Source of the DNA: Whalleya microplaca
Lineage: Eukaryota; Ascomycota; Sordariomycetes; Xylariales; Xylariaceae
Direction of reading: 5' to 3'
Assembly: GCA_022497155.1 (NCBI GenBank)
Contig: MU385711.1
Coordinates: 1,054,001 to 1,118,000, forward strand
Length of the DNA: 64,000 bases
Both the position numbers and the translations under genes were made by a program. The notes under the pieces were generated by a model. It was given only the letters and a program-made list of their open reading frames with translations, was not told the origin of the DNA and made no database searches. Shown piece after piece: positions 2,888-45,897 of this stretch (position 1 is its first letter; each line of letters starts with the position of its first letter).

Positions 2888-2895
2888 ATTTGTGT
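2888..2895. repeat. Left 8-bp target duplication of element G
   Basis: ATTTGTGT here is repeated exactly at 45890-45897. Both copies lie five bases outside the 20-bp inverted repeats, and the bases on either side differ, so the duplication is exactly 8 bp. Confidence 0.75.
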
Positions 2896-2920
2896 CTGGG
2901 TCGTTAACGGAGCACCTGTT
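2896..2920 (+). repeat. Left terminal inverted repeat of element G
   Basis: TCGTTAACGGAGCACCTGTT at 2901-2920 is the exact reverse complement of 45865-45884. The five outermost bases, CTGGG, do not match the right end. Confidence 0.75.
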
Positions 2921-3209
2921 TATGTACGGCATAGGGCAGATTTTAACCTTTGCGTAATGTACTGGCTATTTCGCTGCTCCACTAATTTTATACGGTAATT
3001 AAAAGCCGGAAGCCCCGATTGGCTAGGTAATCGCTTTTCCGCGCTTATATTTATTAATATAACTAGAAATAATACTATTTATATAATACGGGAGCGTTTA
3101 AGGCATTTAAATTATTTAATATAGTAAGCAGTTAAGCTACTTAATTATTTCCTATTTATTATTATTAAATTAAAGCTATTAAGCTAATAAATTATATATA
3201 TAATTATAT

Positions 3210-3480
3210 ATATTATAATAATTTAGCTATATATAATATTTAATTATTAATTTTATTATATATATATATATATATATATATAATAATTTATATATATATA
3301 TAATAATTTAGCTATATATAATATTTAATTATTAATTTTATTATATATATATATAATAATTTAGCTATATATAATATTTAATTACTAGTTTTATTATATA
3401 TATATATATATAGTAATTCGGCTATATATATTATTTAATTATTAATTTTATTATATATATATAATTATATATATTAATTT
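3210..3480. repeat. AT-rich tandem repeat
   Basis: A core reading AATTTAGCTATATATAATA, followed by a TTTAATTATTAATTTTATTA-like run, recurs about four times, separated by variable (TA)n tracts. It lies in the RIP-mutated left part of element G. Confidence 0.7.
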
Positions 3481-3530
3481 ATTACCTTTTAATTTAGCAA
3501 TTAAGTTATAAATAACTATCGGAATTTATA

Positions 3531-5079
3531 TATATAATTATATATATATATAATATTAAAATAATAAAATAAAATATAAATATAATTATATATTTATTAG
3601 GCTTAAATTTATTAATTATAACCTTTTTAAACTAATTTTACTACCGCTATTATTATTATTATTACTATTATTACTATTACCACTATTATTATTATTATTA
3701 TTACTATTATTATTATAGCTGCCGTTACCGACCCTTATAATATTTCCTTTTTAAAAAATAACGTTTTGCGTTTTTATCGTTATAAGCGTTAATGCCGCGT
3801 GACTTTTTATATATATTTATAAACCTGTATTAAATAATTAAATATATCCGGATATAACTAATTATATTATAAGCCGTTAAATAATATAAAAAGTTATTTC
3901 GGTAGTTTATTTATATTTCGCCTCCCGCCCCCGTTTAAATTATAGCTTTATTATTAAGTTATTAGATTTAATTGCTAGTAATTTCTTAATTATAAATTTA
4001 AAATAACTAGCTAATTCCCGCCCTTTTATTGCTACTAAAAGCCGCGCTAATTATAAATATAATAAGCCGCTTTAATTATATTATATATATTAATTAAAAG
4101 TTTATAAGAAAATATTCTAGCTATATATGCTTAAATTTACGGCCCGATATAACGGGATAACGCCCGATATAATAACTATATTAAAAAAAAAGGTTTCTAG
4201 GCTTTTTATATACGTAAGCCGGCTTTTCTTAACCGTTAAACCGATATATTAAGTAATATTTATACCTATTATTATTATAATAAATGTTACGGCACAGGCT
4301 TATAAGTGTGTTATAAAGCTTTATAAGCTATATAGCTATAAGGCACCTCACTAAGCCCCTCACACGTGACTTTCTTAATAACCTCTCGATTAGTTAGCTA
4401 AATTAGATAAGCAGGTGAGGAGGTTTTCTTAGGTTAGGCTGTTATATAATAATTAGCTAACCTTTTACTCCTTACTTTATTATTTTATAATAATACACAC
4501 CTATTACTTAACACGCGCCGCCTCCTTCTTTAAGCCGTCACAATAAATAAAGAAATACCTGCTTTTTATTAGTATATATATATAACTATTAAAATTTATA
4601 AGACTCGAATATAAAGCTAATAATAAATAATCGCCGTTTTTTAATATATTGCCACTCCCGCGCTTATTATAATAGCAATAAATTAAGTACTTTTATAAAT
4701 AATAACAGTAATAATATTAATACTATTACTGCCTATTATACCCCCTAATTCTGCCGGCTTAAAATTAATAAAATATTATAAGTTTTTATCCGAAACTAAG
4801 CGAGCCGGCACTCGTGCTAATTTAAAAGCTCGGTTAGCCGCTTTTATAAAAGCGGAAGCAGAAAAAAAAAAAGAAAAAAAAAGGAAAAAAAGGAAAAAAA
4901 AAAAAAAAAACCTATAATTTCGGCTATTTAAAAAAATTTTAAATAAAAAAAAACGATAACGATAATAACGATAACGAAATTTTAACGGAATTAATAGCTA
5001 GATTAAGTAAATAAATATAAATTTATTTTATATATAGCTTATATATTTTTTTATAATATATTTTATATATATAATTATA
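3531..5079. other. RIP-degraded left part of element G
   Basis: Extremely AT-rich sequence with an (ATT)n-type microsatellite at about 3648-3717 and a solo LTR at 4285-4542. Around 4740-4915 a plus-strand frame is more protein-like than its surroundings: it runs through KFLSETKRAG and ends in a long Lys-rich stretch coded by an A-tract. This could be the tail of a lost transposase, but I do not recognise it. No intact gene. Confidence 0.45.
4285..4542 (+). mobile_element. Solo LTR of family C
   Basis: A 258-bp sequence starting TGTTACGGCACAGG and ending GCCGTCACA. It is flanked by the perfect 5-bp duplication ATAAA (4280-4284 and 4543-4547). It is the reverse complement of the LTRs of the Gag-only elements at 18323-20755 and 23790-44108, so it lies in the opposite orientation to them. 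It keeps more GC than its surroundings, as expected for a short sequence below RIP length limits or a recent insertion. Solo LTRs arise by recombination between the two LTRs of a full copy. Confidence 0.88.
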
Positions 5080-5294
5080 TATATAAATTTAAAATACTTA
5101 TTTTAAGTACGTAAATCTGTGTATATAAATCTGAAATGTTTATTTTAAATACGTAAATTTATATATATAAATTTAAAATATTTATTTTAAATATATAAAT
5201 TTATATATATAAATTTAAAATGCTTATTTTAAATATATAAATCTATATATATAAATTTGAAATGTTTATTTTAAATACGCAAATCTATATATAT
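5080..5294. repeat. 42-bp minisatellite, left half
   Basis: About five units of a 42-bp motif (AAATTTAAAATGYTTATTTT followed by an AAATAYRYAAATCTATAT-like part). The array resumes at 20851-21110 directly after element B, so B inserted into it with target duplication ATAT. There are no variable spacers and it is not CRISPR. Confidence 0.85.
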
Positions 5295-5520
5295 TGTTAT
5301 GGGGCTAGTGTGCCGTGACATATATATATCGCTTGTCTTTTTTTTTACTTTTAAATAAAACATACACAGCTTATATAGCTTTATTACCGATAATAAATAT
5401 ATCTCTCCTTTCGATTAATCGCTGTTATAAGTGACTTTTTTATTTTGTCGCTTTAATTATCTCCGATTAGCTAAGCTATAAAATAGCACCTCCTTTACTT
5501 TAATACCTTATCTTAAGATA
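5295..5520 (+). repeat. 5' LTR of element B
   Basis: A 226-bp LTR, followed at 5521 by TTTAGCTCCCC and a leader that is nearly the same as the leader after the 5' LTRs of family A. Confidence 0.85.
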
Positions 5521-5538
5521 TTTAGCTCCCCTAAATAG

Positions 5539-7175
5539 TGTAATGGGGCAAGGGGATTACGGGTAGTGATAGCAGCTTAAAAGCCACTAAAAGCCCCCTA
5601 GAGCCACGTTATAAAGCACTTTATAAGGCACTTCACAGGGTATTTATAAGGCATTTTATAGGGTAATTTACAGTAAATTATATACCTATATTTAGCTAAC
5701 CTTTTCTTTTATATCTTTTTCACTTTTTTATAATAAATATTACCAAATAGTCAGATAGTTATATATATAGCTTTGGCAGCTAATATATACTTATTTTAAT
5801 TTAATATTTTACTTTCGATTTATCCCGATACCCTATTTTAAGATATTTAGCTCCCCCGGATAAGCTTTAACTTTCTTACTTTCTAATTAATCGAGTAAAA
5901 TAGTCCTTTTATATTATAAGTTACGGAGGTATAAAATTTATTAGTAATAATTACTTAAAGTATATTTATTGTCGAGCTTACTTTATTTTTATCCGATAAA
6001 TCGCACGCGGATTATTTTATTTTATCCGATAGTTACTTGTTTTTTATATAAATCGAACTAAGTTATATATTCGATCGATAATTAGCTAGCTGCTTTATTT
6101 ATATATTATATTTACGTTATTTATTACTTATAATTTATAAATTTTCTTTTTTATATATTAGAAATATAAAACGTAATAATATTAAAAATACTAAACCGTA
6201 TGTTTTTATATATAAACCTGTCTATTTTATATAGGTAATAATAATAAGCTAATTATGCTATTAATATATAGCTAAATGTAGCTAGCTATTAATATATATA
6301 TAATTTATATAAATAACGATATCGGATAACACCTTTTTATACCTTAATACACCTTATTACTTAAATATCACCTTTAGTAGCAAGGGAGGCCTTTAGTAGT
6401 AAAGGAAACTGTCAGCTGCTACTGTTGCTGCTGCTATTAATAGCTGTGGCTAGCTGACCTGCTATCACCTGCTGACCTGCTATTACCTGCTAACCTGCTG
6501 TCACCTGTTATTAGCTGTTAGGGAGGCTTACAGGGAGGTTACTTAATCTGAGCTGCTATAGCTGCTACTGCTAATAGCTGTGGCTATCTGACTTGTTAAA
6601 AGCTATGGCTAGCTGTGGCTAGTTAACTTATTGTCACCTGCTATCACTTGACTTGCTGCTAATTAGCTATAAGCTATGGCCACCTGACCTAACCTGCTGC
6701 TGCTAATAGCTATAGCTATCTGACCTATTACCTTAAGGTCCCTGGGGTAAAAATTTTTTTTTTTTTTCAGATCTAAAGGTCAGGCATTCAAGTGTGGGGC
6801 GTGTTTTCATTTTTCTTTTTTTCAGATTTTTCAGCTACGTAAACGCTAGCTGAAAAATCAGGGAGGGATATAATAGGGCAAGAGGATTACGGGTAGTGAC
6901 AGCAGCTTAAAAGCCACTAAAAGCCCCTTGGAGCCACGTCATAAAGCACTTTATAAAGCACTCCACAAGGTATCCACAGGGCACTCTATAAGGCAATTTA
7001 TAATAAATTATATACCTATATTTAGCTAACCTTTTCCCTTATATCTCCTTCACTTTTTTATAACAGATATCACTAGATAGTTAAATAGTTACACATATAG
7101 CTTTAGCAGTTAATATACATTTATTTTAACTTAATATCTCACTTTTAATTCACCCCGACACCCTGTCCTAAGACA
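5539..7175 (+). mobile_element. Element A1: non-coding miniature LTR retroelement (TRIM/LARD-like)
   Basis: Two 307-bp LTRs (5539-5845 and 6869-7175) flank about 1.0 kb of internal sequence with no reading frame. The TSD is ATAG (5535-5538 and 7176-7179). The leader after the 5' LTR matches that of host element B. The internal part contains a CTG-rich repeat zone (about 6400-6740), T-tracts, a 12-bp-stem hairpin (6825-6859) and the purine tract AGGGAGGGA directly before the 3' LTR. It is moderately RIP-mutated. It has the signals needed in cis for retrotransposition but no proteins, so it must be mobilised in trans, most likely by B-type machinery. Confidence 0.88.
6825..6868 (+). other. Hairpin and polypurine tract of A1
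   Basis: GATTTTTCAGCT (6825-6836) and AGCTGAAAAATC (6848-6859) form a perfect 12-bp stem. It is followed directly by AGGGAGGGA, the likely plus-strand primer, next to the 3' LTR. The same arrangement recurs in A2 and, RIP-damaged, in A3. Confidence 0.7.
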
Positions 7176-7179
7176 ATAG

Positions 7180-10100
7180 GCTTTAACTTTTTCGCCTTTT
7201 TAATTAATCAAAAAAAATAGTTTAAATAAAGGCAGCAATAAAATAAAACTAAAAAAAAAAAACTTTAATAAAACCCCTAAAACTACTAAACTAACCGAAT
7301 TTATAAAAAAAAAACATTAACTAAAAGAAAAAACTAACGGTAAACGATTATTTAAAATAAAAAAATAATGCTAAAAATAAATAAATTAATAAAGAGATTT
7401 ATAAAAAACCTATAATATATATTAATAAATTAGTAATATAGAAATATAAAAATATAGAAAACATAAAATATAAAAAACACAAAAATATAGTAATACGAAA
7501 ATATAAAAAAGCATAAGTTTTAATAAAGTAAGTTAAATATAAGAAAATTAGTAGTACGGAAAATTAGGAAAAATTAAAAAATTATAAAATATATAGTAAA
7601 TAGTATATAAAAACGTATTATAGTTTAAACTTATAAAATAAACTAAGGTAAAATTTAAATAACGAAAATAATATCCGAGCTTTTAATTAGCCTATAAGTA
7701 GTTTTATTACGCGATTAATTAATTAATATAATACAATAGCCAGGTTAGCAATTTATTATCGAGATTTTTTTTAAAAGTCTCCTAATTTTTAAAGCTATTA
7801 TTAGCATCTTAAGGGATAGTTATAATCTTATATCTAAAGTATTATAAGACTATAATTTAATACAATTAAAAAAAATAAAATATATTTCCTTAAAATTAAA
7901 TATAACTAAAGAATTAAAACAGTTAAATAATAAGATATTTTAAACTATATTAAATATAGCTAAAAAGGGATTTTTCCGACTAACCGATAATTAAGGGATT
8001 ATTAACCCTATTAATTAAAGGCATTATTAAAACAAAAGAGATTTAATATTATATAATTAAAATACTTAATTAAAAATAACTAGCTAAAAGACTTTATCCC
8101 TTAATATAATAAAAAACATATAAGTCGATAAAAAGCTTACAGATTAAAATATAGCTTCCGATTAAAAGCTATTTATTACAACCGGAAAAACTAGGTTTAT
8201 AATAACGGCTGCATTACTAGACTTTAGAAACTACTTATAGCTTTTATTCAATAGAAATAATATTATAAATTAAATCGAAAATATAATATATATATTCGAT
8301 AAATATAGCTTAAAAAATAATATTAAAATTAAGGAAATGTTATATTAAATAGATAACTAAACTAATAAATAATAGATCGAAACTTTACTAAAAGGTATTA
8401 TTATTTAAAAAAAAACAAAAGTAATTTTAAAGCGATATTTTAAAATTAATAACTTAAAATAAATAAAAACTTTTATAAAACGGTTAAAAAACCTAAAAAA
8501 AGGTAATAAATTATTCGGACCGATAAAAATTTATTATTATATTTTAAATTATTTAGTTCGAGTAAAGAACGTCCGGAAATAAAGAAAAATTAAAAAATAA
8601 GACGCTATTTTTGTTAATAGTCTATAGCAGAAAATCGATCAAAAAATTATTAAGCGGATTATATAATTTTGCTCGAAATTATATAACGAGTTTTTCGAAC
8701 TAAATTACAAAAAGCCTAGAATACTATATATATATAAGCAAATATTATAGTCGGCTTAATAAATTATAATAGCCGTAATATCCGATAAGTTTTGCCTAAT
8801 CGACCGTATAAAAATAAATCGGTTAATTATTAACGTTCGGTTCGGTTCCGCTTACTATTAGTAAGCTTAAAATAGCCTAAAGTTATCTTTAAAAAAAAGA
8901 CTTTATTTTTTTAGTTAAATAAAATAAAAAACTTAATTAAATTTATAAAATAAATATTTATTATATAATTTAAAGCTAACGAAAATTTTACTATATTTAT
9001 AAAAAAATTTTAATTAATGTTACTAAAATTAAAATATTACATCTTATAAAAAGAAACCTTTATTTAATAAAATATTTAAAAACGTAAAGTAAGGGATATA
9101 TCTCTTAATATTTATCGCGCCAAACTTTTAAATAAAAAAAGAAGATATAAAAAATATAATAACTAATAAAATTAAAACAATCGATATATATTATAACCGA
9201 TATTATTTTAAGGGTATAATCGAAATACTTATTTTTTTTACGGAAAACTAGGTTATTTTTTTATTACCTACTTTCTAATAACGTTATTAAGCCGCAATAA
9301 TATAATATAATATAATAATTAACTTAAGGGATATTTTATCAGAGGTTTTTAAATTACTCCCGAAATTAGGAATATTTTATTTTTTAAATATATAATTACC
9401 GAAGGTAAAATAAATAAAAAAAATATTATTTAAGCCTACCTATAATTCCTATATAAAATAAAAATATGCGATATTTAAATTCGGAAATTAGCTTATTATT
9501 ACCTTTATAAATATAATAAAATCGAAAAGAATATAAAGTTTAAATAAAACTATAATTTTATTTAATTAATAACTAATCTATAAAATTATAACCCGGAAAT
9601 AATACCAGTTATAGATTTAAAAATTAATAGTATTAGAATAAAAGGCTTAAAAAATAATACTTTTTATAAATTTATAAACTTATAAAATTACCTTTAAAAA
9701 AAACCAACTATTAATAAAAACAGAAATCCTATATATAAAATAGTAATTAAGTTATTTTAATATAAAAGTAAAAATAAAATTAACGTTTTAGTATTAAAAA
9801 AACATAAAAATATAGACAGTAATATATCTATAAAAAAAATAATTAATAAAGTTTTATTAAAACTAAACCCTTTACTTTTAATAGTCCTAAAAACGCTAAA
9901 ATAAACTTAAACTAATAAGCTAGAAAGTATTATACCTAATTAATTAGCTTTAACTTTAATTTCGGAATACTAAAAAAAGAGGATTTTTAAAAATACGGCA
10001 AAAAGATTTAAAATTTTATAAAATAATCTAATTAAATATTATACGGGATTTAGTAAAACATTACTTTAATACCTATTCGATAAAATAAATAAAATAAATC

Positions 10101-13100
10101 GAAAATTTTATAAAATAATTTATGTTTTTTTAGCCGAAATAATTAATTAATAATAATAAAAATAACAATTTTAGTTTAATTTTATATTAAGCGTATTATA
10201 ATTAGTTTTTATACCTAATAAATCCTAAGATAACTTTATAACTATATCAATTAATAATATATTTATAATACCCGGTAACGTTACTTAAATTATTATAGTA
10301 TTTCTGCCGGTATTTATCCGGGATATTAAAATATATATCTAACTATTACCCTAATTAATTATAAGAATTAGTTTTAAAAAATATAAGGACTTAATTACTA
10401 TAGTTATTAATACAAGTATTTAATTAAATATTATTACGTAATTATACGTTTTTAAATATTAAATACTTATATAAAAAATTAAAATTATATAATCCGGCTT
10501 TAATATATTAGTAAATAATAAAACTAAAAGTTTTAATTTAATTAAAAAACTTATATAGTTAATAAGCTATAGTTTACCGCTACTAATTTATATAATTAAA
10601 AATTTTAAAGTTATATTCCCGTTACTTTTTAGCCTTAATTTTATTTTCTAATCGCGTATAATAATTTACCTTAAAAAAAGCTTATTAATAGTTTCGATAT
10701 TTTTTGGAAGTATTAAAATTATAGTTCCCTTTATATATAATAAGCTAACTAAATAAATTTTAGCCGACGTTATTAATTTTTCGGAAAACTAATAACCGCC
10801 GACATTAAAAACTAAGTTAATAATAAATAAAGGCCTTAAAATATTACAGCAATAATAAATCTGGCGAAATTTAAAAGCGTAATTTAAAATAACTTAAGCT
10901 TAAAATAGGTCGGTAAACGGATAGAAATTACTATTAATAAAATACTTTAAAATAACAATTAAGTATAAGCTTTATTATTTAATAATTATTTATTAGGCTT
11001 ATTACGGGAAATTATTAGAAAGGAATTTAAATAGGTAATATAGTATATAATATTATATTATAAAAAGATATTACGGAAAAACGAAATTAAGTTATATATA
11101 ATATATAAATTAAAAGTATAAAAAATTTACCTAATTAATAATGCCGAATTAAATAATATAGTCCCTTTAAGGTTGATTAATTAAAAATAAATAATATTAT
11201 AAAATATAAAGCCGAATTTCGAACTTTTAAATATATTTAAAACAGATAAAAAATATAAGAATATTATTCTGTGTTTCGCTTCCGCGCCGCGAAATATTAA
11301 ATTAATAAAAAAACACTTAAACGTTATTAAAATAAAGCTATTAAATATAAAGCTTATAAATTAAAAGAAAGTAATATTAATCGAGATTTTTTATTAATAA
11401 AAAATAACATTAGTTTAAGACTTTATAAAAATCGGCCAAATTAGGGAAAAAGTATTTTCTTTATATAAAATTAAAATAATATTATATAATATATAATAAG
11501 TTAGATTAATTTTTATTTTAGCGCTATTAAAAATACAGGTTTTAAATATTTTATAAAGTTAGCTTAAAAATAAGATATTGGAAAAATCCTATATTTTATA
11601 CCGTAACGCCTAATTTATAATTAAAAAAAAGAATAAAAGCTTTTGGTTAATTAATTCGGCAATAAAATTAAATATTATATAAATATAAAACGCCTTTTTT
11701 CCGAGCAATTGTAATAAATTTATAAAGGAATTTATTATATAAATAATAATCTTTATAATAGACTTTTTTTTAGAATATAATTAAATATTATTATTTATAT
11801 TTAATAAAAATTATACTATATTTTCGACGCCGATTAGGCTTTTCCGGATAACAACTTTGCTATAAAAAGAAACTAATTCGGTAGTATAATTTTTATATAT
11901 TATTACCCGGATTTTATTCGACTTTATACCCGATAAATACAAGCTATTTTTTAATAATATTAGTATTAAAAGGCTAAAAACGAGATATAATAATTAAAAG
12001 ATTACATTAAAAATAAAACAATTTGTTTATAAATATTTAAAAAATATTAATAATATTTTATTTAATTTTAAACTAATAGGAGCTATAGTTAGTGTAAAAA
12101 AAAGCGATTGGTATAAAAACGCTACTATTATTATCGGCTATTTATACGGTATTAATAGTCGTTTTTTTAATTAAATTAAGGTTATTAAAATTACGGAATA
12201 AATATTTTATAATAATATTTTTAAAATGCGGGTATTTCTAGAAATTATAATCTATTATTATATATAGATTATATATTATACGTTAATTATTTTATTATTA
12301 ATAAAACTTTTCCGGAAAAACGTAAATTAAAAATAAGGAATAAAATAATAGTAAGTTATAAATAAACTTAAAATAGTATTAATTAATATATCTTATTTAA
12401 TTATGTTTAATTATATAAATAGATATATTATTTGGTTTAAAATTAATACATTAGGTATTAAATAAAGGTATATATTAGAATAGAAAATTAATAAATACGT
12501 TTAATTTGCGAAATTTAAATCTGGTATATAAAAAAGGCTAAAATTTAATTATAATATTATAAAATAAAAATGCCTCGGGATAATTAAGTCTTTTCGATAA
12601 TTACGAAATTACTTTTATAATACGAGATTTATTTTCGAAACTAATATTAAAGTTTTAATCGCTTAATTAAATAATAGATTTTCTAGCTTATTTAACGCAG
12701 CATTAATTTAGTAAATAGCTTTTATTAAAATATTTAATTTCGAAATAAAGTATATTTTTAAAAAACGATATTAAATAGCAGATAGTTTATTATATAAATT
12801 ATTAAAGCTATCCGATAAGTTAGATAATTAATAGAAAAAAAAAGTCGATAATTTTATTAATATCTAATTTAACGTTTTTATAATAAAAATACTTTAATTA
12901 AATAAACTAATATAAGAAATACCGGAATTTTTTTTATTATTTATTATTTTATACCCGTTAGAAAGCTAGTCTAAAACTTTTTAAAAAATCGCAATATATT
13001 TTAGTATTTTAAAATTACTTAATCGATTAAAAAGTTTTAATATAACGAGATAATATTGTACGAAAATAAGCTTCCGGAATAAAACTATTAAATACGTAAT

Positions 13101-14290
13101 TTAAAAGGAAATTTTATAGCGGAAACCTTATAAGAAATATAGCTAATGGCGTATCGTTAATAATATTAATTAATAAAAGCGTATTATTAAAAACTGTTAC
13201 TCGAGAGTTAGAACGTATCAAAAATAAAAATCGACTTATAATAAAATAGTTAAGTTTTATTACTAAAAAAGGATATATTAGGAAATCGCGACTACCGTCA
13301 AATATTACTTAAAATGCTAGCTTTTTATAAATAGACAATTTAGGAATTAAGAATTTTTTTTAACGCTAAAATAGTTACTAACTATTTAGATTATTAATAT
13401 TTAGTTTTTCCCGAACGATAATAAATATTCGGCTATTATCGAAATAAAAAATAAGCTATTAAGGTAGCTTAAAATTAAAGCATTAAAAAATACTATAGTA
13501 ATTAAAGTATAAAAGTTTTTTTAAGATTATATTTATACTAATTATAATATTTTTATAATAATTAAATATAATAAAAGCTTAAAAAATAAAGTAAAAGTAG
13601 CTAAAAATGTTATATAGTTAGGTATTAAAATATAAGTCGGACTTATATATTATTTTTAAACGTAAGAATAAATAAAGGTAAGTTATTAACCGATTATAAG
13701 ATCTTTTATACATATAACGGGAAAAACTAGCAAATTATAAGTTAAGAAATTTGAAACTATACTTTAGGTTAATTAAACGTTTATATAAGAATATAAATTT
13801 ATACTATATAAACTAGTTTATAGTAAAAAACTTATTATACCGATCGAAATAATTTTATTATTTTAATAGGTCTTTAATTAGTCGGATATTTATAATAGGA
13901 AAAATCTTATTACTAAAAAAATAAGAATATTTAAATAATAAGACGAGAATATTGCGAAAGTGGTATAAATTTTAATAAAAAAACGAAAAAAAGCGGCGGA
14001 ACGAAATAATCGATAATACTTATTAAAAAAACGGTTAGAATTATTAAAGTAAGGCAGCCTAGTTTTATTTTATAATATAATATAAAATATCGATATATCT
14101 AAAAATAAAAAGCTAAAATATAAATAAACTAGGCTTTATTAAATTGTAAAAAAATAAAAACGGAATAGGTTTTTTTTAAAAAAATTAAACGGGGTAATAT
14201 TATAAGAAATATTTTTTTTAATCGACTAAAAGATTTATTTAAAATATAAAAAAGTACTAAAAACTTAGCGAACTTTATAATAACTATTAA
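7180..14290 (+). pseudogene. RIP-killed gag-pol of element B
   Basis: A plus-strand Ty3-type polyprotein relic. Around 11.3-12.3 kb the reverse transcriptase can be followed despite stops: the stretch before the catalytic box reads like the fungal Ty3 motif LFRITTL with the following NSV, and the degenerate catalytic region reads LFFNNISIKRLKTRY (family form LDDIGVKGP). Near 14.0-14.25 kb the end of pol resembles the conserved KLxYxWTGPYRI and NRLKRF region of this group. The 5' part (7.2-9.6 kb) should be gag and protease but is poorly recognisable. In-frame stops are TAA and TAG, as RIP of CAA, CAG and TGG codons would give. Confidence 0.65.
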
Positions 14291-20451: not shown

Positions 20452-20495
20452 AGCGCTAAATTAATTTAATAGCGGAATCAGTTAAATTTAGCGCT
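20452..20495 (-). other. Leader hairpin of element C1
   Basis: AGCGCTAAATTAA and a nearly complementary arm ending AATTTAGCGCT enclose about 20 nt. It sits just inside the element's 5' LTR and primer-binding position. The same hairpin occurs in C2 (43795-43838) with one RIP-type mismatch. A packaging or dimerisation role is a guess from its place. Confidence 0.55.
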
Positions 20496-30809: not shown

Positions 30810-30921
30810 ATATAATAACGCGAGTAATAAATAACTAATAAAAATTAGCGCCGCTTAATAAAATAACGTAATTGTCTTAACTTAAAAAAGATTCCGAAAC
30901 TTTTTTAAATTCCGAGTAAAA

Positions 30922-33900: not shown

Positions 33901-36900
33901 ATAGACTAGGATTTATATTTAAACCTATAATCTTTTGCCGAATTTCTTATTTTATAAAGAGAGCGCGCTAATAAAAAAAGCGAATAGGAGTACGACATAA
34001 AAGGCGTTTATAAATTATAAAAAAATGCGATCGGTTAGTATAAGTAGCGACTAATAAATATGGCGGTTATTAATATAAAACTTTTCTTTAAAGTAGCACG
34101 AAAGACTTATATATATATAATTATACTATATAAAATCGATAGATTAATATATAATAAGAAAAACGAAGCCTTTTTTAAAAAAAACGGAAGATTTAAAGAA
34201 AAAGGTTTAAAAAGCTGTTTTAAAGGAGTACCGGAATCTGTTTCGTACTTTTAGTAAGGTTAATTTAAATATTTTACTGCCTAACTATATTTTTAATTAT
34301 AAAATAAAATAAGAAAAGGAGAAGTTAGTTACGGATCTAAGGTATAGCCCCCTATATAAAATATTATTAGATAAGCTGGAAACGGTACGTAAATATTTTA
34401 ACGAGAATTTGCGTAAAGGATTTATTATTTTTAGTTTAACTCCTTAAACAGCTCTTATATTATTTATATTTAAAGCTAATAACGGATTATAGTTTTATAT
34501 AAATTACCGGAAGCTAAACGCGCTTATAAAAAAGGATAAATACCCCTTATTATTAATCGAAAAAACCTTAGTACAAATTTTTAAAGCTAAGATTTTTATT
34601 AAAATTAACGTTCGATAGGTTTTTTATTATATTTGTATACAACCGGAAAATAAAGACTTTACGATATTCCGGATATAATATAATACATATAAATATAAAG
34701 TTCTCCCTTTCGGGCTTATAAATAGACTTTTAATTTTTTAACGATATATTAATAACGCGTTATTCGATTTTTTTAACGACTTTTATAATATATATATAAA
34801 TAATATCTTAATTTTTTTAAAGTCGATTAAAGAGTACTATATTTATATAAAAAAAGTCCTTTAATAACTAAAAAACGCGGGCTTTTAAGCGGATCTTAAA
34901 AAATGTAAATTTTATATTACTTAAATAAAGTTCCTAAAGTATATTATAAGTATAGACAGAATATATGTCGACTTTATTAAAGTATAAGTAATTTAAGATT
35001 AGGCTATTTTAAAACGAATATAAAAAATATAATCGTTTTTGGGATTTTATAATTTCTACCGAAAATTTATACCCTAATATAATAAAATAGTTAAACCGTT
35101 TTTTTAGCTAATAAAAATAAAAGTCCGGTAGAACTGGAATAAGTATTGTAAAATTACGTTTTAGCAATTAAAGGATAATTTAATTAATGTTTTTTTATTA
35201 GTATATTTTAATTATAATAGAGATATAAAAGTAGAGACTAACGCATTTAATAAAATATTAGCTAGTATATTATTATAATAAGGAGATAATAATAAATAAT
35301 ATTTATATATATTTTATTTAAAAACGATATATAGCGCCGAGTTAAATTATAATATATATAATAAAAAGATATTTATAATAATCTATATTTTATAAGTTTA
35401 GCGGGCGGAGCTTATCGGGATATAAGTTATTTTTTTTTTAATTATTATTAATTATTATATATTAAAGTATTTCGGAATTAAATAATACTTTAATTTATAG
35501 CAGGCAGGCTAATCAGAAATATTAGCGGAATATAACTTTACAATTACTTACCGATTAGAAAAAGATAATATAGTAGCGGATATTATTTCGCGTAAACTAA
35601 AATTACTGCGTATTTAAAAAGCAAAAATACTAGACTAAAGATATAAAACCCTGTTTTAATTAGTAGTTTTAACTAAGATTTAAAAGCTATAAGTAAGTAT
35701 TTTATATATAAGGGTAAGCCTTCTTTCGGAAATCCTAATTTTAAACAATATAAAATTTCCTTTACTAAAAGGCTCCGGCGTAATACTTATTAACGAAATA
35801 CTATAAAGAAATAAAAATAACCCCGACTTTAAAATCTATTATACGAAAGTACGTAATAACTTTTTAGGCTTATGGTAAAATATTAATAGCCTTATATTAT
35901 ACGGGATATAACTAATTATATTTAATAAGAATAGATTGCGCGCCCGGCTTTTAAAGGAAGTATATAATTAATTACCTATAATATATTTAAGAAAAAATAA
36001 AACCCGAAAGTTTATTATTATATAATATTAGTAGCTAGAAATATTTTAAGACGTTAATATATTTGTAGCTAATTATTTCGAGTGTTGTTTTATAAAAATA
36101 TCTTGCGATAAAACCCCCGGGTTTCTTTATTTATTGTTTATTTTAAAGAAAGTATAAAATTATATCGTTATAAATTTTAAAATAATGCCTAAAAATAAGA
36201 AAAAACGTAATAACGTTTTTATTATTATTAATTATTTAGGAAAGTAAGCTTGGTCGATAGCGTGTACCCGAGAAGCAATAGCGCGGGATATTACATATAT
36301 ATATTATAATAAACCTTTCTGTATTTTTGGGATTTCTAAGAGTATTATTAGCGATAGTAGACCCTAATTTATAATAAGGTTTACCGATAAACTCTCCTAA
36401 ATAATAAGTATTAAATTAAAATTCGCTATATTAAGGCATTATGAGATAGTAGAATAAGTCGAAATTATAAATATATATATCAATTAAAGACTACAGCTAT
36501 TTATTAATTACTAGTAAAATAATTAATTAAGTGCATTATTAGCAATAGATTATATGTAAGCTATTTTATTATATAAATTAACCGGTATATCCCTTTATAA
36601 AGTAAAAATAGGCTTTCCGATACTATTTTATTTCAATTAATAGCGACAGACAAAAGTTAAAAATATAGCGGATCTCCTACTTAGGGAAAGACTTTTTAAA
36701 AAAGAAATATAAGATTAGGTATAAAGAATATATAATTATATAATAACTATACGCGAGGCTATTACTAAAGCTTAAAAGCAAATAATATAACAAATTAATA
36801 GGCATTACCGGAAGCCCGATTTTAATATAGGCGACCGTATTTTTATTATTAAAAAACAGCAATTATAACGTACTAATTATCTTTTTAATAAACTTAACTT

Positions 36901-37918
36901 TTTATTAACGCAATAATATTTTAAAATCGAGAAGCGATTATTTAATAATACGTTTCGATTAAAGGTTTCTAATATATAAAAGGCGTCCCGCCTATATTAC
37001 ACTAACTAATTATAACGATACCTAAATAACCCTTTCCCGGGATAAGAATTTAAAAATCTAACTAGATAAATAATGAAACTAAATATAAAAAAGGAGTAGG
37101 TTATAAAAATAGTACTAATATTACAGCTATATTATTATAAGCTTTAATATAAAATTAAATAAATCGGATAAAATGCCGATAATAAATAATACCCCGCCCG
37201 GAATTTTAAGAACGCTATAATTAAGCTAAACAAGTTTTATATAAATAATCTAAAGGTAGTTAATCCTTTTGCCCGGCTAGTATTATGGAAGCAAGCGGCA
37301 AAAAAAGATTAATTTAATCCGGACTACCTTAATAATAATAAACCTGTGTTAAAACGGCAGACAGCGGCCCGAAAGCGTGGAAGGGATTAATAAAATAATA
37401 GTAAAAATAAATAAAGAAGTTACGACTATAAAACACGTATATATAGTGTTTTATAAAGACGGATTTTAATAAAGTATAAAGAAGTCTATATTATTACTTA
37501 TTAAAATAAAGGCCTAATAATATAATGGCTTAAATAAATACCCGAGGCAATCCCTTTTTTTATTAAAAAATACTTTAAATATATATATATAAGGAAAGTC
37601 GGGGTTTAATTTCCCTTTGGATTTTATATCTTTTCTTTTTTTTCTGGGGGGGTAGTTACGGGAAGTATATACCTATGGTATATAAACCACCTATTGCTAT
37701 ATATACTTATAGTATATAAACTACCTATTATTATATATTCCTATATATTAATCAGTAACGGCACGGCAAAATGGTTACTACCTAGCGGGACATCCGGCTT
37801 AAGTTTTTTAAGCAATTTATATAGTCCGAAATAGCTTTCCTCCCCATTTATTTATAAATATATAATTAGTACTTATATTAAAGCCCTACCTCTAGCTATA
37901 GTAGTCCAGGCGTAAGTG
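30922..37918 (+). mobile_element. Element F: Ty3/Gypsy chromovirus-type retrotransposon, 7.0 kb
   Basis: LTRs of 264 bp each (30922-31185 and 37655-37918), TSD TAAAA (30917-30921 and 37919-37923), inserted in D. The tract CTGGGGGGGTA precedes the 3' LTR. The exact first base of the LTR is uncertain by one or two bases because the usual TG...CA ends are not visible. The coding order on the plus strand is gag, RT, integrase, chromodomain. All are inactivated by RIP. Confidence 0.83.
31186..37650 (+). pseudogene. RIP-killed gag-pol with chromodomain, element F
   Basis: A Gag zinc knuckle relic lies at about 32885-32935 (FNYYNKGYNKINCPYF, from a C-x2-C-x4-H-x4-C pattern). The RT is clear at 34.45-35.1 kb: FYINYRKLNALIKKDKYPL, the KVLPFGL stretch, the catalytic box as YINNILIF (YxDD degraded) and SFLGFYNFYRKFI. 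The integrase core follows around 36.2-36.5 kb (SIISDSRPQF). At about 37120-37240 LQYKIKWIGWNADNKWYPA matches a chromodomain, which in chromoviruses steers integration toward heterochromatin by binding methylated histone H3. Short intact frames inside are shadows. Confidence 0.75.
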
Positions 37919-37961
37919 TAAAATATAAATAATATTTTATAAAAACTTAATTTAATAATAT

Positions 37962-39491
37962 TATAATAAAGCAGGGGATTACGGGTATTAATAACAGCTT
38001 AAAAGCCATTAAAAGCCCCCTAAAGCCACGTTATAAAACACTTTATAAGGTATTTATAAAACATTTCATAAGGCAATTTATAATAAATTATATACCTATA
38101 TTTAACTAACCTTTTCCCTCACATCTCCTTCACTTTTTTATAATAGATATCATTAAATAGTTAAATAGTTACACACACATAACTTTAGCAGCTAATATAC
38201 ACTTATTTTTTTTAACTTAATATCTCACTTTTGTTTCACCCCGACACCTTATTTTAAGACATTTAACTCACCCCCGGATAGGCCTTAACTTCCTTGCCTT
38301 TTAATTAATTAAATAAAACAGTCTTTTTTAAAATATTATAAGTTATAAAGGCATAGAATTCACTAGTAATAGCCACTTAAAATACATATTATTAAACTCA
38401 CTTTCGCATGCAATTATTTCATTTCGTCCGATAGCCACTTATTTTTTATATAAATTAAATCAAGCTATATGCTCGATTAATAGCTAGCCAGCTACTTTTA
38501 TTTATATTATATCTATATTACTTATTACCTACGATTTACGAATTTTCTTTTTTATATATTAGGAATATAAAGCGTAATAACACTAAAAATACTAAACTAT
38601 ATATTTTTATATATAAACTTATTTATTTTATATAAGTAATAATAATAAGCTAATTATACTTAATATATAATTAAATATAACTAGCTATTAATATATATAT
38701 AATTTATATAAACGATAATATCGGATAATACTTTTTTATACCTTAATACACTATATCACTTAAATGCCACCTTTAGTAATAAGGGAGGCTATTAGCTACT
38801 ATTATTACTATTGTTATTAATAGCTATGGCTAGCTAACTTATTATCACTTATTAACTTACTATCACTTATTAAAAAAGCTTATAAAAAGGTCACTTAACT
38901 TAACTTGTTATTATTAATAACTATAGCTAGCTAACTTATTATCACTTATTGTTACTTAACTTGCTACTAATTAACTATAAGCTATAGCCACTTAACTTAA
39001 CCTGTTGTTACTATTACTAGCTGTTATTAATAGCTGTGGCTATTTAACTTATTACTTTAAAGTCCCTGGGGTGAAAATTTTTTTTTTTTTTTAGATCTAA
39101 AGGTTAAGCATTTAAGTGTAAGGCGTATTTTTATTTTTCTTTTTTTCAGATTTTTTACCTGCGTAAACGCTAGCTAAAAAATCAGGGAAAGATATAATAA
39201 AGCAGGGGATTACGGGTATTAACAATAGCTTAAAAGCCACTAAAAGCCCCTTAAAGCCACGTTATAAAACACTTCACAAGGTATTTATAGGGCACTTTAT
39301 AAAGCAATTTACAGTGGATTATATACCTATATTTAGCTAACCTTTTCCCTCACATCTCCTTCACTTTTTTATAACAGATATCACTAAATAGTTAAATAGT
39401 CACACACATATAGCTTTAGTAGCTAATATACACTCATTTTTTTAACCTAATATCTCACTTTCGTTTCACCCCGACACCTTGTCTTAAAACA
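37962..39491 (+). mobile_element. Element A3: non-coding miniature LTR retroelement, most mutated copy
   Basis: LTRs 37962-38261 and 39193-39491 (300 and 299 bp), TSD ATAT (37958-37961 and 39492-39495), inserted in D only 34 bp after F and its target duplication. The CTG zone has mostly become CTA/TTA, and the stem of the 3' hairpin is partly broken by RIP changes. Confidence 0.88.
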
Positions 39492-39495
39492 ATAT

Positions 39496-42400
39496 ATAAA
39501 AAAGTTAAAAGCTAAATTACGGGAGGCTAAGGCTATTAGCTAACGCCCGACTATATTATTAACCCCCGCTATTATTTTAAAGCGATTTATTTATATATCT
39601 AACTTAAAACTATTATTATTTTATATAATAGTTAATTAGTCTAATTAAAGTATATTATTTATAGCTAAAATATTAGCTAATAACGGAGAATTACGAGAAT
39701 AGCCGTTTCTTATATTTTAAAAACGCCGTAAGCGTTATAAAAACGCCTTAAATTAAGCCTATTTTATACGTAATTAATATAGCCGATATAAATTAAAACA
39801 TAACTGTTTAACTTAATACTATAACCGACTAATAAATATAGCGTTTATTAAAGCAGTAGCCTTTTATTACGTAACTAAAAAAACTACTTAAAAGTAACTA
39901 GCTTATATAAAATTAACCGATATATTAATAACTTAAAAAATGAAATATTATTAAGCCGCAATAAAATAAAGTTTTGCTAAAAAGTATTAAAAGTAGTACC
40001 GAAAGTGCATTATTAATACCTAGATATATTTAATAAAATAGACTTTAATAAATTACTTTCTTACCGACTTAAAGTAAATTATAAAATTTAATTAGAAGAA
40101 TTTTTTAATAAATTAGGGTATAGTCCCTTATATAAGATATTATTAAAGAAATTGGAAATTTGCCGTTAGTATATTATAAATAACCTATATAAAGGATTTA
40201 TTAAATCGAGTACGGCTTTTTAAGCTGCCCTTATCCTTTTTATAACTAAGCTTAATAAAAAGATATATTTTTATATAAATTATTAAAAGCTAAATATTAT
40301 TATATATAAGAACTGCTACCTTTTGTCTCTTATTAACGAAACCTTATTATATATTTCTAAGGCTAAAATATTTATTAAAATTAATATCTATTAAGCTTTT
40401 TACCGCATATAAATATATTTAAATATTAAAGAGCTAATAATTTTCCGCACTAAATATAGAACGTATAAATATAAGGTCTTTTTTTTTAAATTAACTAACG
40501 GACTATTAACCTTTTAAAGGTATATTAATAATACCCTAATAAAATATTTAAACGATTTCTATAGCGCGTATATTAATAACATCTTAATTTTTTTTAAAAA
40601 CGAAATCAATTATATTAAATATGTTAATAAGATATTAGCCCAGTTATAGGCTGCTAAATTATAGGCCGATTTATTTAAGTATAAATTTTATATATAAAAA
40701 ACCAAGTTTTTAGGATTTATTATAAGCATTAATAATATTGCTATCGATCCCGAGAAAATCCGAGCTATAAAATCTTAAAAGGAACTTAAAAACGTAAAAA
40801 ATATATAGTCCTTTTTAGGATTTTATAATTTTTACTAACGGTTCGTGCGGGAATATAATAAAATCGCTAAGCTATTTATAAATTTCACCCGGAAAAAAAA
40901 AGCTTTTAATTAAACCTATAAATATTAGGAAGTTTTCGATAACTTAAAATACCGGTTAACTTACGTATTTATATTTCGTTATTTCTTATATAATTTAAAA
41001 ATTAAGCTTAAGATTAACGTTTTTAAAGGTATAATTATAGGCGTTATATTTTAATAACTCTCGGAAAATTCCAAATAATACCTTATTATATATTATTCCG
41101 AAACTATATAAAAGGCCGAGCTTAACTATAATATTTACGACAAGAAAATATTAGCCGTAGTTCGAGTATTATAAAATTAAAAAGCTAAATTAATCGGTTT
41201 ATAAAACCCCCGTCCGTTTCTTATAGTAATTAATTATTATATTTTAAAATATTTTAGTATTAAAAAACTTTTAAACGTTTATTAAATAGGCTAGGCCGAA
41301 CTATTAGTTTAATATCATTTTATTATTATCTATTAATTAGGATTAAAAAATGTATTAGCTAATATTCTGTTTAAAAAATTCGAGAATTTAAAGATATAAA
41401 AAGCTAAATAAAAAGCCTATTATATAATAACCTTATTTTAACCCGTTCCCTAACCTTTTATAACCTTTATTATCGATACCGTAATCTTTTATATCGATAT
41501 AGCTATAATAAAAGTATAAAATAAAAAAGTAGGTATATTTATATTAAATTAAGATATAAAGCTACCTCTTAATTCCGGCGTTAAGCTAGTGGATCTTTTT
41601 TTAAAAGCTAATGTTATATATCGGGACCTTAATACTTATCGAAAGCGTATTTATATTACGCTCCCGCATTTTAATTACTTTATAACTAAATAGCTAATAT
41701 TATATACGGGCCGCTTAATAGTTCCCGACTAGAATTAATTATATACCCGATTATTAATTAAAACTTATTTTAGACTTTTTACTAGCTATTTAAGCTATAT
41801 AAAAATAAGATAGCTTATAGCCGAACGATATTAGTAGTTAGGCTAGACTTCCGATATAAATTATTTTATTAATAATTATAAATGCCGACTGTTTAAAATC
41901 CTTAAGGATAAAAAACCGGGATTTTTAAATCTTCTGCCGGTACTCTTATAAATTTAGCAATATTTAGTAATAGATTTTAAATTAATGCTAACTAATAAAA
42001 AAAATTATAATAACTTATTAGTAATAATATATCGATTTAACAAACGATTTTAATATATTTTATATAATAAGTTTATTATAGCTAAAAATGTAGCGATAAT
42101 ATATTATTATAAACTTTTATAAATTTATCAACTACTTTAATTAATCGGAAACGACTATAAATCTTAATTTATTATAAATTTTACCGATAAATTATTTAAG
42201 ATTTTAGGTATTAAATAAAAATTATTATTTGCGGGTTATTTATAAACTATAAAATAGGCCGAAATTATAAACGCTTATATCGATTAATAATTACGACTTT
42301 TTATTAATTACTATTAAAATAACTGGTTAAATATTATCCTTATAGCTAACGTAATATAAGCTAGCCTACTTTATAAATCTATCGGTTGCTTATTTTATAA

Positions 42401-43400
42401 AGCGGAACAAGAATTTCTTATACCTTTATTTTTTAACTAAAAGGCTTATATTAAAGATTTAATAACCTTACTTCCGTATAAGCGCCTTAATTATAAAAAT
42501 ATATAAGTAATAACCTAAACCTTAAAAAGCTATTTAAATTTAATACGGGAAATTATAATTCGATCGTAAATTTATATAAATAAATAAGCTAATCGCTATC
42601 GGAAAAAACCCGATTTCGGTTTTAGTAATTATATATATATTTTTAAAAAGCCGGGCACTAATATAAATTAACTTAGCGATAAGCTAGACTACCTGATAAC
42701 GAGAAACCATTATAAAATAAAAAAAATAATCGGCTATTTTTATTAATTAAAATTGCCTAATATTTAAAAAGGATTTTATATATTTTATATAAATCGTTTA
42801 CGTAAATACCCTAATAACTTATTACCCGAATAAACTAATAAAAACCTTAAGGGTAAAGTAATAAATCCTAATAGCGAGAAAAAATAAAAAGTCGATTACG
42901 TTTTATCGTTATATATATATCGTAAGAAATTATAATATTAAATATAATAGAAAAAATAAAATTTTAACCTTAAATAATATAACGTTAAAAGCTTTAACAA
43001 TAGTATAATTATATTATAACGATATTATAATAAAAACTTTAATAAAGCCGGACCTTTAATACACTTAAGTAATTAGCGTAAGGCTACCGAGTATAAAAAG
43101 GATAATCTTTTTTATAAAGATAATAATAAAGTAATACCGTAATTAATAAAAAGATTACGTAAAGTTAGGCGTAAATAAAATATCTATTAATAAATACCTT
43201 TTTAATAAATAACTAAATATACGAAATACGCTAATTTTATTTACTAGTAGTAAGGGCCCGGTAATATAATAGTTAATATATAAAACCGAGGGTATCTCTC
43301 CTTTGCTTGGGAATTATTTAGGGTTTAATTTCCGGACGGACTAGTTTGTTATTTTTTAATTTTAATTCTCGAGACGCGAATTTTTCTAACGGGGGAGTAA
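39496..43400 (+). pseudogene. Element D reverse transcriptase, RNase H and integrase remains
   Basis: Continues the D frame. RT motifs: KIFIKINIYQAF, then FKLTNGLLTFQRYIN, then the degraded catalytic box YINNILIF (about 40559-40595) and SFLGFYNFYQRFVREY near 40.8 kb. RNase H and its C-terminal link follow, with QYHFIIIYQLGLKNVLA near 41.3 kb corresponding to the usual GxxNxxADxLSR part. An integrase zinc-binding relic around 41.78-41.9 kb reads SDINYFINNYKCRLF (from HHCC). The integrase core lies downstream. In-frame stops are TAA/TAG. Confidence 0.75.
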
Positions 43401-43614
43401 TATTATAGCACAGGGATTAAAACATAAGGTATAAGATTTAAGGTATAATTTATACGCATTACGTAATTATAGCTTAAGCCTTATACCTAATATATATGGT
43501 AAATTTCTCGGCCGACCTTTTAGCTTAAATTTTTTTTTTTTTTCTATCTTAAGATTATATAAAATATATAGGAATTAGGTCGCTAAGCCACCTTAACCCT
43601 TATAACACGTGATA
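43401..43614 (+). repeat. 3' LTR of element D
   Basis: 214 bp, preceded by the purine tract CGGGGGAGTAA and followed by TSD GCTAC. Confidence 0.85.
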
Positions 43615-43794
43615 GCTACTAATTGTCGGTATATTTTACTAGCTGCTTAAAGAGTTAAAAAGGATCTCGCTATCGCATAAAAAGGTATTACTAGCTAAAG
43701 TAAAAGTATTATAACACTTAATAAAAAAAAGCTAGGCTGCCGATCGAGGAAAAAAAAATTAACGGGTAATTAATTAACCACACTAATTAAAAAA

Positions 43795-43838
43795 AGCGCT
43801 AAATTAATTCGATAGCGGAATCAGCTTAATTTAACGCT
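43795..43838 (-). other. Leader hairpin of element C2
   Basis: AGCGCTAAATTAA (43795-43807) and TTAATTTAACGCT (43826-43838) pair over 13 positions with one mismatch. It is the same structure as in C1. Confidence 0.55.
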
Positions 43839-44113
43839 AAAAGACCTTATAATTATGTGACGGCTTAAAAAAAAAGGCGGCGCGTGCTATATAATAAGTA
43901 TATATTACTAAAAATTATAAAGTAAGGAGTAAAAAGTTAACTAATTACTATATGACAGCCTGACTTAAGAAAACCTCCTCACTTAATTACCTAAGCTATT
44001 TAACTAAGCATGTAATTTAACAGGTCACGTATAAAGGGCTTAAGGTATATTATAACTATAAGGAGCTTACAGGGACCTTATAGCACCCCACAGGCTTATG
44101 CCGTGACATTAAA

Positions 44114-45864
44114 AATAAAAGTCTCCGAATTTAAGATCCGAAAACGGGATTAAAATTAAAACTATAATCGTTTTATTTTAATAACTACCTTTAAATAATT
44201 AAAAATTAAAGGTTTTATAATTCGTTTTTTAACGTAAATAAAACTGTTAAATAAAAGCGGAAAAATATAAAAACCCTAATTTTCGTTAAAGCGTTAAATA
44301 CGAAATTCTTTATTATATTATTCTTTATATTATATCCAGGTTTTAACTAATATATCTAAAATAATAATAAAACTTTAAAACAATTAAAATACCGATATAA
44401 TAAAGCTATTAAAGCCTTAAAGCAAAAAGCCTTATAAAAAGTTTATTATATATTAATATAATAAAAAAAAGCATTTAAATAACCGATAAACCTATTATAT
44501 TAAATTTAAATATAGCCTAATAATAAAGAATTTAAATAATTAATTTAAAAAGTTAAAAATTAAAAAGCGTTAAAAAACTTATAGTTATAAATATATAATT
44601 ATATATATAATATTAAAAACTAATATAATTTAATACGTAATTATATATATAATAATTAAATTTAAACTTAAAATTACGTAATTTAAAATTGCCTAAATTA
44701 AAATTTTAAGAAATTAATATAATATTTAATATTATATATAATTATATATATAACTCTTTTATATAATACGTAATTACGTATATTAAATATACCCTTTATT
44801 ACTGCTAATAAAATTTTAACTTTTCCTTCCCGATTGCTAATAAAATTTAAGCTATTCTCTCCCAATTACTAATAAATATAATACGTAATTATATATATTA
44901 AATATACCTTTTATTACTGCTAATAAAATTTTAACTTTTCTTTCCCGATTACTAATAAACTTTTAACTTTTCCCGTTTATTATTAATAATATTTTAACTT
45001 TTAATATATTTTTTCCTTTAAAATTAATAGTTATTTATTTATATATATAAAAATCCGCTATATTTTTCCTATAAAAAATTAATATAATAAAACCTAATTT
45101 ATAAAATATTTATAATAAAAAAATTAAATCTATTTTAATAAACTGTTAAAATATAAGTTTATTATAAACGAATTATTAAAAAATTTATTTTAATAAGCTG
45201 TTAATATTTATTTAAATAATTTAAAAAAAAGATATCTAATAAACCTAGTTATTATTAACGTAAATTATTTACCGCCAAATATTTTTAATATTAAAATTTT
45301 TTTAAATTTATAGCCGTATAATTTAAAGCCGCATAATTTATAACGTAAAATCGGAATTTAAAATTAAATTAATAGTTATTTATAAATACGTTAAAAAAGC
45401 GGTTAAAAATAAGCCGGAAAAAATATATATAAATTAATATCTTAAATAAAATCGAAATCGATTTAAAACTATAAAATTTAAAGCCGAGTTAGCAATTATT
45501 AGTAAAAAATACGTCAAAAATAGTTAATAATAAACCTAATAAAAAATATATATATAAATTAACGCGCTAATAAAAATATTAAATAAAAAACTATAGTTAT
45601 TAATAAAATAATAATAAAAAAAGGCTTATAAAACTTTAAAGTTGTTAAAAATATTACTAAAAATTATATTAAAATAGCTTTAATTTTAATTACTATAAAA
45701 AAAGTTATAAATAAAAAAGTTAAGAAATTTTAATATAACGCGATATATAAATATATTACGCGTAAATATACGCCTTTAATCTCTATATTAAATAGCCGCG
45801 AAACGCGGGTAAGATATAAAAGGTATAATGTCCTGAAGTCGCGGGAAGCTAAATAAGTGGAACG
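44114..45864. other. RIP-degraded right part of element G
   Basis: No gene. It contains a repeat zone at about 44764-45000 in which ACTGCTAATAAAATTTTAAC and TAATACGTAATTA blocks recur with a period near 113 bp. GC rises again over the last roughly 80 bp before the right inverted repeat. Confidence 0.45.
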
Positions 45865-45889
45865 AACAGGTGCTCCGTTAACGAAGCCC
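45865..45889 (-). repeat. Right terminal inverted repeat of element G
   Basis: AACAGGTGCTCCGTTAACGA (45865-45884) is the exact reverse complement of 2901-2920, followed by AGCCC and the second copy of the 8-bp duplication. Confidence 0.75.
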
Positions 45890-45897
45890 ATTTGTGT
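45890..45897. repeat. Right 8-bp target duplication of element G
   Basis: ATTTGTGT, identical to 2888-2895. Confidence 0.75.

What the first reader, a model, noticed from the sequence alone, without database searches (positions are those of the whole stretch)
2888..45897. The entire 43 kb AT-rich block is one insertion: 8-bp target duplication plus 20-bp inverted repeats at its edges
ATTTGTGT occurs at 2888-2895 and 45890-45897. Exactly five bases inside each lies a perfect 20-bp inverted repeat (2901-2920 and 45865-45884). By chance a 20-bp inverted match anywhere in 64 kb is already unlikely (order of one in several hundred), and an 8-bp direct repeat at matching offsets makes chance negligible. 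An isochore that looks like ordinary heterochromatin therefore seems to have grown from a single roughly 6.9 kb hAT-like transposon. The terminal five bases (CTGGG and AGCCC) do not pair, which is unusual for hAT.
Basis: partly seen in the sequence, partly recalled or inferred. Interest (0 to 1): 0.9.

Follow-up and report, generated by a model that had tools for sequence, protein, structure and literature searches.

The report
Transposon that became a gene-poor block
A 43,000-base AT-rich block in a fungal genome is one jumping-gene insertion of about 6,850 bases, one of at least 21 copies, which was riddled with mutations and then invaded by other jumping genes; well supported, but this kind of block growth is already known in fungi.

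Summary
The founder-insertion reading holds. In the 48-Mb genome the 20-mer occurs 39 times with up to 2 mismatches (control 0): 38 are ends of one family of at least 21 copies, one is a lone fragment. Of the 21 copies, 12 have exact 8-bp target duplications, 6 have one transition, 2 have exact 9-bp and 1 an exact 7-bp duplication; 0 of 420 mispaired ends match at 8 bp with one mismatch or fewer. Eleven of 17 single-contig copies are 6.6-7.3 kb; the four compact copies that I read are collinear with four pieces of the block, about 6.85 kb in all. The rest is nested: two LTR elements (15.5 and 20.3 kb), a solo LTR and second-level elements, most with their own 5-bp duplications. Five other copies grew to 18-25 kb. 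Mutation is C-to-T, mainly at CpA, RIP-like. 'hAT-like' is not supported; the eroded minus-strand frame gives only a weak Mutator-like (MULE) match, E 0.0021 in 1 of 9 copies. An undescribed, probably MULE, DNA transposon.

The parts
2888..2895 (+). 8-bp target-site duplication, left copy (ATTTGTGT)
45890..45897 (+). 8-bp target-site duplication, right copy (ATTTGTGT)
2896..2920 (+). left element terminus: CTGGG plus 20-bp TIR
   Evidence: family breakpoint
45865..45889 (-). right element terminus: 20-bp TIR plus AGCCC
   Evidence: family breakpoint
2896..4284 (+). founder transposon, piece 1 (its last 5 bases are the ATAAA duplication of the solo LTR)
   Evidence: collinear with 4 compact copies
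4285..4542 (-). nested solo LTR of the 'C' retrotransposon family, 5-bp duplication ATAAA
4548..5294 (+). founder transposon, piece 2 (ends in a 42-bp tandem array)
5295..20846 (+). nested LTR retrotransposon 'B'; boundary within a TA run, duplication ATATA ambiguous by one base; weak RT-RNaseH match at about 12511-12669
5540..7216 (+). second-level short LTR element inside B, 5-bp duplication ATAGT
18323..20755 (+). second-level 'C'-family LTR element inside the 3' LTR of B, 5-bp duplication AGTGA
20847..23789 (+). founder transposon, piece 3; carries the eroded reading frame taken as transposase, on the minus strand
21256..21543 (+). piece inside the founder related to the end of an un-mutated MULE on contig C52; used to show the C-to-T direction
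22653..22877 (-). region aligned with the stretch that matches the MULE transposase domain in copy C38b (the window's own sequence gave no match)
23790..44108 (+). nested LTR retrotransposon 'C', LTRs 23790-24045 and about 43847-44108, 5-bp duplication TTAAA; RVT_1 match at about 34499-34942
27478..29138 (+). second-level short LTR element inside C, 5-bp duplication CTATT
30591..30814 (-). second-level solo LTR of the 'B' family inside C (own duplication not checked)
37962..39491 (+). second-level short LTR element inside C (edges approximate, no clean duplication shown)
44114..45889 (+). founder transposon, piece 4

Best explanation
The block is one class II (cut-and-paste) DNA transposon of about 6.85 kb that inserted into GC-balanced DNA with a staggered cut, duplicating 8 bp. 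It belongs to a family of at least 21 copies; the ten whose whole interior or block I read are all AT-rich (GC 0.21-0.26) and mutated in a RIP-like, CpA-preferring C-to-T pattern. After insertion, LTR retrotransposons landed in it (a 20.3-kb and a 15.5-kb element and a solo LTR directly in the founder, others inside those), and the whole stands at 23% GC. Shown: edges, duplications, family, collinearity, nesting, mutation direction. Inferred: a transposase of the DDE type, probably Mutator-like (MULE), made the insertion; RIP did the mutating; the retrotransposons came later (this follows from the nesting). My odds for the superfamily alone are about 0.6 MULE.
For: Shared ends of 21 copies and 38 of 39 genomic 20-mer sites being such ends, control 0. 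Duplications in 21 of 21 copies if 7-9 bp and one transition are allowed; 18 of 21 at 8 bp with one mismatch or fewer against 0 of 420 mispaired ends (the control was made for 8 bp only). A two-base TIR variant present at both ends of the two copies that have it (C40a, C28) and at neither end of the other 19. Collinear founder pieces. Nested 5-bp duplications. Against an un-mutated MULE end, 64-71 of 73-80 substitutions in five copies are C>T/G>A and 86-93% of CpA sites are changed. Between copies, transitions outnumber transversions (for example 1039 to 31, window against C6). GC. PF10551 match, E 0.023 with stops as X and 0.0021 with stops read as Q/W, in 1 of 9 copies.
Against: The MULE label is weak: 18.9 bits against a curated cut-off of 27.6, one copy of nine, after twelve family scans. 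Profile comparison with the un-mutated C52 MULE found nothing (and, for the minus frame, 73), a RIP-tolerant alignment to it was not above shuffled queries, and homolog and PDB searches found nothing. No empty site was seen. The duplications show a slight composition bias (information 1.50 bits, reached by 7% of random flank sets).
Confidence: 0.96

Rival explanations
1. Same structure, but the founder is a hAT element.
For: 8-bp duplications in 18 of 21 copies, usual for hAT; short TIRs. For the Hermes target nTnnnnAn (PMC10512250 passage): T at position 2 plus A at position 7 in 14 of 36 places against 9.5 expected.
Against: No hAT domain in the scans made (the scans of C23 and C49 covered one strand only). 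The hAT dimerisation domain is found six times above cut-off elsewhere in this genome, five with stops, but in none of the family copies. Ends CTGGG/GGGCT do not fit the hAT terminal motif YARNG as I recall it. Two copies have 9 bp and one 7 bp.
Confidence: 0.15
2. Same structure, but the founder belongs to another superfamily that makes 8-bp duplications, such as KDZ (Zisupton/Dileera) or P.
For: Zisupton and a Dileera family make 8-bp duplications (PMC12730594 passages).
Against: No such domain in the Pfam scans. The KDZ genome search found nothing, but its controls found nothing either, so it says little.
Confidence: 0.2
3. The block is an eroded giant tyrosine-recombinase element (Starship type), 43 kb long from the start.
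For: Length, and presence of TIRs and a target duplication.
Against: Eleven of 17 single-contig copies are 6.6-7.3 kb; the excess here is made of LTR elements, most with their own duplications. Targets share no strong motif.
Confidence: 0.01
4. The flanking match is chance and the AT-rich block has several unrelated origins.
For: None found.
Against: Twenty other copies with the same edges and duplications.
Confidence: 0.005

Closest known systems
Mutator-like elements (MULE), e.g. Muta1 of Aedes aegypti
   Same: Duplications of 8 or 9 bp without sequence preference, TIRs, insertion near genes (PMC5225508, abstract and passages seen); weak MULE domain match here.
   Different: Muta1 is 3198 bp with 145-bp TIRs; here about 6.85 kb with 20-bp TIRs and five unpaired terminal bases; reading frame too eroded for a firm match.
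hAT superfamily
   Same: 8-bp duplication in most copies, short TIRs.
   Different: No hAT domain found, terminal motif does not fit (motif recalled), 7- and 9-bp duplications occur.
AT-isochores of Leptosphaeria maculans
   Same: Blocks of mosaic, RIP-degenerated transposable elements between GC-balanced gene regions (PMC4210507, passages seen).
   Different: There described as mosaics of truncated elements; here one block can be read as layers on a single founder with exact edges. GC 0.23 here against 33.9% there.

Membership tests
Class II TIR DNA transposon | Terminal inverted repeats shared by copies | tested here: met
   21 copies, 0-5 mismatches between the two ends in the inner 20 bp (0 in 11 of 21); 38 of 39 genomic sites are family ends.
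Class II TIR DNA transposon | Target duplication of near-fixed length and variable sequence | tested here: met
   12 exact 8 bp, 6 with one transition, 2 of 9 bp, 1 of 7 bp., the 18 of 8 bp: information 1.50 bits against 1.01 (sd 0.30) for random flank 8-mers, reached by 7% of them.
MULE | MULE transposase domain (PF10551) | tested here: inconclusive
   1 of 9 copies, 15.6 and 18.9 bits, cut-off 27.6; 8 of 9 copies no match. Genome search at E 1: seven places, none in this family.
MULE | Target duplication usually 8-11 bp (range recalled; 8 or 9 bp for Muta1) | tested here: met
   20 of 21 copies 8-9 bp, one 7 bp.
MULE | Sequence similarity to a MULE transposase of the same genome | tested here: not met
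   against the un-mutated MULE on C52; a weak test, since simulated RIP alone leaves only 50-53% identity to the native protein.
hAT | 8-bp duplication | tested here: met
   18 of 21 copies at 8 bp.
hAT | hAT dimerisation or RNase-H-like domain | tested here: not met
   Searches covered one strand. (PF14372) is uninformative because its controls found nothing. Erosion may hide a domain.
hAT | Terminal motif YARNG (recalled) | tested here: not met
   Ends CTGGG and GGGCT.
KDZ (Kyakuja-Dileera-Zisupton) | KDZ domain PF18758 | tested here: inconclusive
   nothing in the genome, nothing in the controls.
Starship | Tyrosine-recombinase captain | tested here: inconclusive
   No such Pfam match in the read-through frames scanned; no genome search was made for it.

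The most novel reading that the evidence does not exclude
Founder model: in this fungus many AT-rich islands amid gene-rich DNA are seeded by a single cut-and-paste transposon insertion; once mutated, the founder becomes a preferred or safe landing pad for LTR retrotransposons, so island size tracks age. Six of 17 single-contig copies have already grown (18-43 kb), and 4 of these 6 hold a two-LTR 'B' element.
Probability: 0.3. Interest if true: 0.55.

Novelty: new member of a known kind. Interest (0 to 1): 0.4.

Why it matters
It gives a case where the origin of a heterochromatin-like block can be read layer by layer, from an exact insertion to a 43-kb AT-rich block, with 16 further contiguous copies at other stages. 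That lets one ask directly how such blocks start and grow, and whether retrotransposons seek out DNA that is already mutated. The matched duplications also suggest contig joins: four copies have their two ends on different contigs with matching duplications, so assembly breaks appear to lie inside such blocks.

Tried and rejected
Coding strand: period-3 composition first made me take the plus strand (alignment A1); nothing matched. That signal is strand-symmetric. The codon-aligned minus frame (A2) looked more like a transposase to me and gave the only weak domain match, so I drop A1 as the coding frame; stop density does not decide between them. The stop-explanation test was not informative because the copies are saturated. 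In one search the pieces of the minus-strand nested copies C41 and C40 (and C33) were not in element order; redid the nested copies in order.

One search compared A1 with the C52 MULE in a wrong frame; redone. The RIP-tolerant alignment to that one MULE was not significant. In one search the native profile gave no significant score and the RIP-simulated profile returned no hits at all, which I do not interpret.

Retrotransposon targeting could not be tested: both LTR families are high-copy (212 and 195 first-look candidates, 40 scored each). Retrotransposon domains were sought on the plus strand only, in B (three frames) and in two frames of one part of C; the rest was, which did not run. Organism: a neighbouring SNF2-type protein has 22 listed hits, of which 7 name an organism, 6 of them Xylaria, Xylariaceae or Annulohypoxylon; an ascomycete near Xylariales is likely but unproven. 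Literature searches looked for the setting, not for this element; 'undescribed' means only that I found no description, and I make no claim that it is absent from print. Papers seen: passages only of PMC12730594, PMC4210507, PMC10512250 and PMC5225508; the others as search listings.
Full report
Observation. The 8-bp direct repeat and the 20-bp inverted repeat are exactly where stated. The window is G000:C2:1054001-1118000 of a 48.1-Mb genome in 114 contigs.

Edges. A search with the left flank and end found 22 places, the window included; in 20 of the 21 others similarity begins between 2894 and 2897, in the last at 2913. Searches with each end found 21 right ends, and 21 left ends plus one 35-bp lone fragment on contig C16. 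Right-end similarity stops at 45889 in 10 of 20 other copies and between 45888 and 45895 in the rest. The bare 20-mer, with up to 2 mismatches, occurs at 39 places in the genome; 38 are these ends, one is the C16 fragment, and the reversed control pattern occurs nowhere. The four ends it misses are more mutated.

Duplications. I paired left and right ends by position and, for four copies, by matching duplication across contigs. Of 21 pairs, 12 have identical 8-bp duplications, 6 differ by one transition, 2 have an exact 9-bp and 1 an exact 7-bp duplication. Of 420 wrong pairings none has fewer than two mismatches over 8 bp. The four cross-contig pairs were chosen with knowledge of their duplications, so they are weaker evidence than the 17 contiguous ones; among those 17, 9 are exact at 8 bp, 5 have one transition and 3 are 7 or 9 bp.

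Termini. The outer five bases differ between the two ends in all 21 copies (left CTGGG or a one-base variant; right GGGCT in 19, GGGGT and AGGCT in one each), so this asymmetry is a family trait. Two copies (C40a, C28) carry the same two-base TIR variant at both ends, and the other 19 at neither, as expected if one transposase reads both ends.

Founder and layers. Eleven of 17 contiguous copies span 6.6-7.3 kb (my arithmetic on the coordinates). Four of these eleven were read in full and align collinearly to 2896-4280, about 4549-5294, 20847-23789 and about 44108-45889 of the window. Inserts in the founder: a solo LTR 4285-4542 (duplication ATAAA), LTR element B 5295-20846 (ATATA, ambiguous in a TA run), LTR element C 23790-44108 (TTAAA). 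Within these: 5540-7216 (ATAGT), 18323-20755 (AGTGA), 27478-29138 (CTATT), and, without a checked duplication, 37962-39491 and a solo LTR at 30591-30814. C carries RVT_1 (E 7.5e-12) and RT_RNaseH_2 (E 3.3e-11); B has only a weak RNaseH match, E 0.0048.

Other copies. The five other grown copies (18-25 kb) contain inserts at other founder positions; C41, C40a and C38b each hold a two-LTR B element, C33 holds a C-family element plus another insert, C1 two inserts of unknown kind. The B elements of the window and of C40a lie in the same tandem array of the founder (C6 coordinates 2121-2244 and 2203-2285) but in opposite orientation, so they are separate events.

Mutation. Inside the block the (CA+TG)/(AC+GT) ratio is 0.23-0.54 in most 2-kb steps (0.73 at 6001-8000, 0.96 at 28001-30000), against 1.01-1.36 in the flanks. 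A piece of about 285 bp inside the founder is related to the end of an un-mutated MULE on contig C52. Relative to it, five copies show 73-80 substitutions, of which 64-71 are C>T or G>A and only 1-3 the reverse; CpA is the most mutated context, 86-93% of sites. This is the signature of RIP, inferred and not assayed. Ten copies were read over their whole length or nearly so; all have GC 0.21-0.26.

Superfamily. Pfam scans found no transposase in copy C6 (all six frames) nor in C23 and C49, which were scanned on one strand only, the one I later took as non-coding. A shared minus-strand frame of nine copies (A2) gave PF10551 (MULE) in one of them: E 0.023 with stops as X and 0.0021 with stops read as Q/W; a second weak hit, PAF-AH_p_II in another copy (E 0.018), shows how close to noise this is. 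The matched stretch corresponds to window 22653-22877, where the window's own sequence scores nothing. I had noticed a recalled MULE-like pattern in this frame before that match appeared. Against: direct comparisons with the C52 MULE fail. Simulated RIP alone halves identity to the native protein, so failure is expected for all but close relatives. The hAT dimerisation domain is detectable six times elsewhere in this genome, five times with stops, but not here. I put MULE at about 0.6, hAT at 0.15, others at 0.2.

Verdict. The founder-insertion reading is right for this block. RIP-degraded mosaic blocks are known (PMC4210507, passages seen); the clean stratigraphy and the 21-copy series at different stages are the worthwhile part.

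Noticed in passing
G000:C52, about 28416-31326 (L068, L069): An apparently un-mutated MULE of about 2.9 kb (ends inferred, target duplication not checked) with inverted ends identical over at least 94 bp and a long open transposase frame (PF10551 E 7.3e-27), in a genome where the other repeats read here are heavily mutated; possibly a recent arrival or an active element.
   Followed up: partly
C97/C20, C5/C45, C15/C49, C40/C19: Four copies have their two ends on different contigs with matching target duplications (one with a single transition), suggesting which contig ends adjoin; the C40 side runs about 39 kb to its contig end.
   Followed up: partly
window 27478-29138, especially 28410-28661: A short LTR element whose middle holds a 131-bp tandem repeat in a stretch of higher GC (0.41) and little CpA depletion, so it looks younger or spared.
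   Followed up: no
window 5540-7216, 27478-29138, 37962-39491: Three copies of a short (about 1.5-1.7 kb) two-LTR element, probably non-autonomous, nested in the larger LTR elements.
   Followed up: partly
L068 positions about 258-440: A module of roughly 170-220 bp recurs at several places beginning at nearly the same base (257-259), apparently shared between different elements.
   Followed up: no
G000:C16:673074-673108 (L051): A lone 35-bp left end of the family, perhaps a deletion or excision remnant.
   Followed up: no
window 1187-1912 and 50945-52927: Neighbouring genes: part of a multicopper oxidase and a SNF2-type helicase.
   Followed up: no
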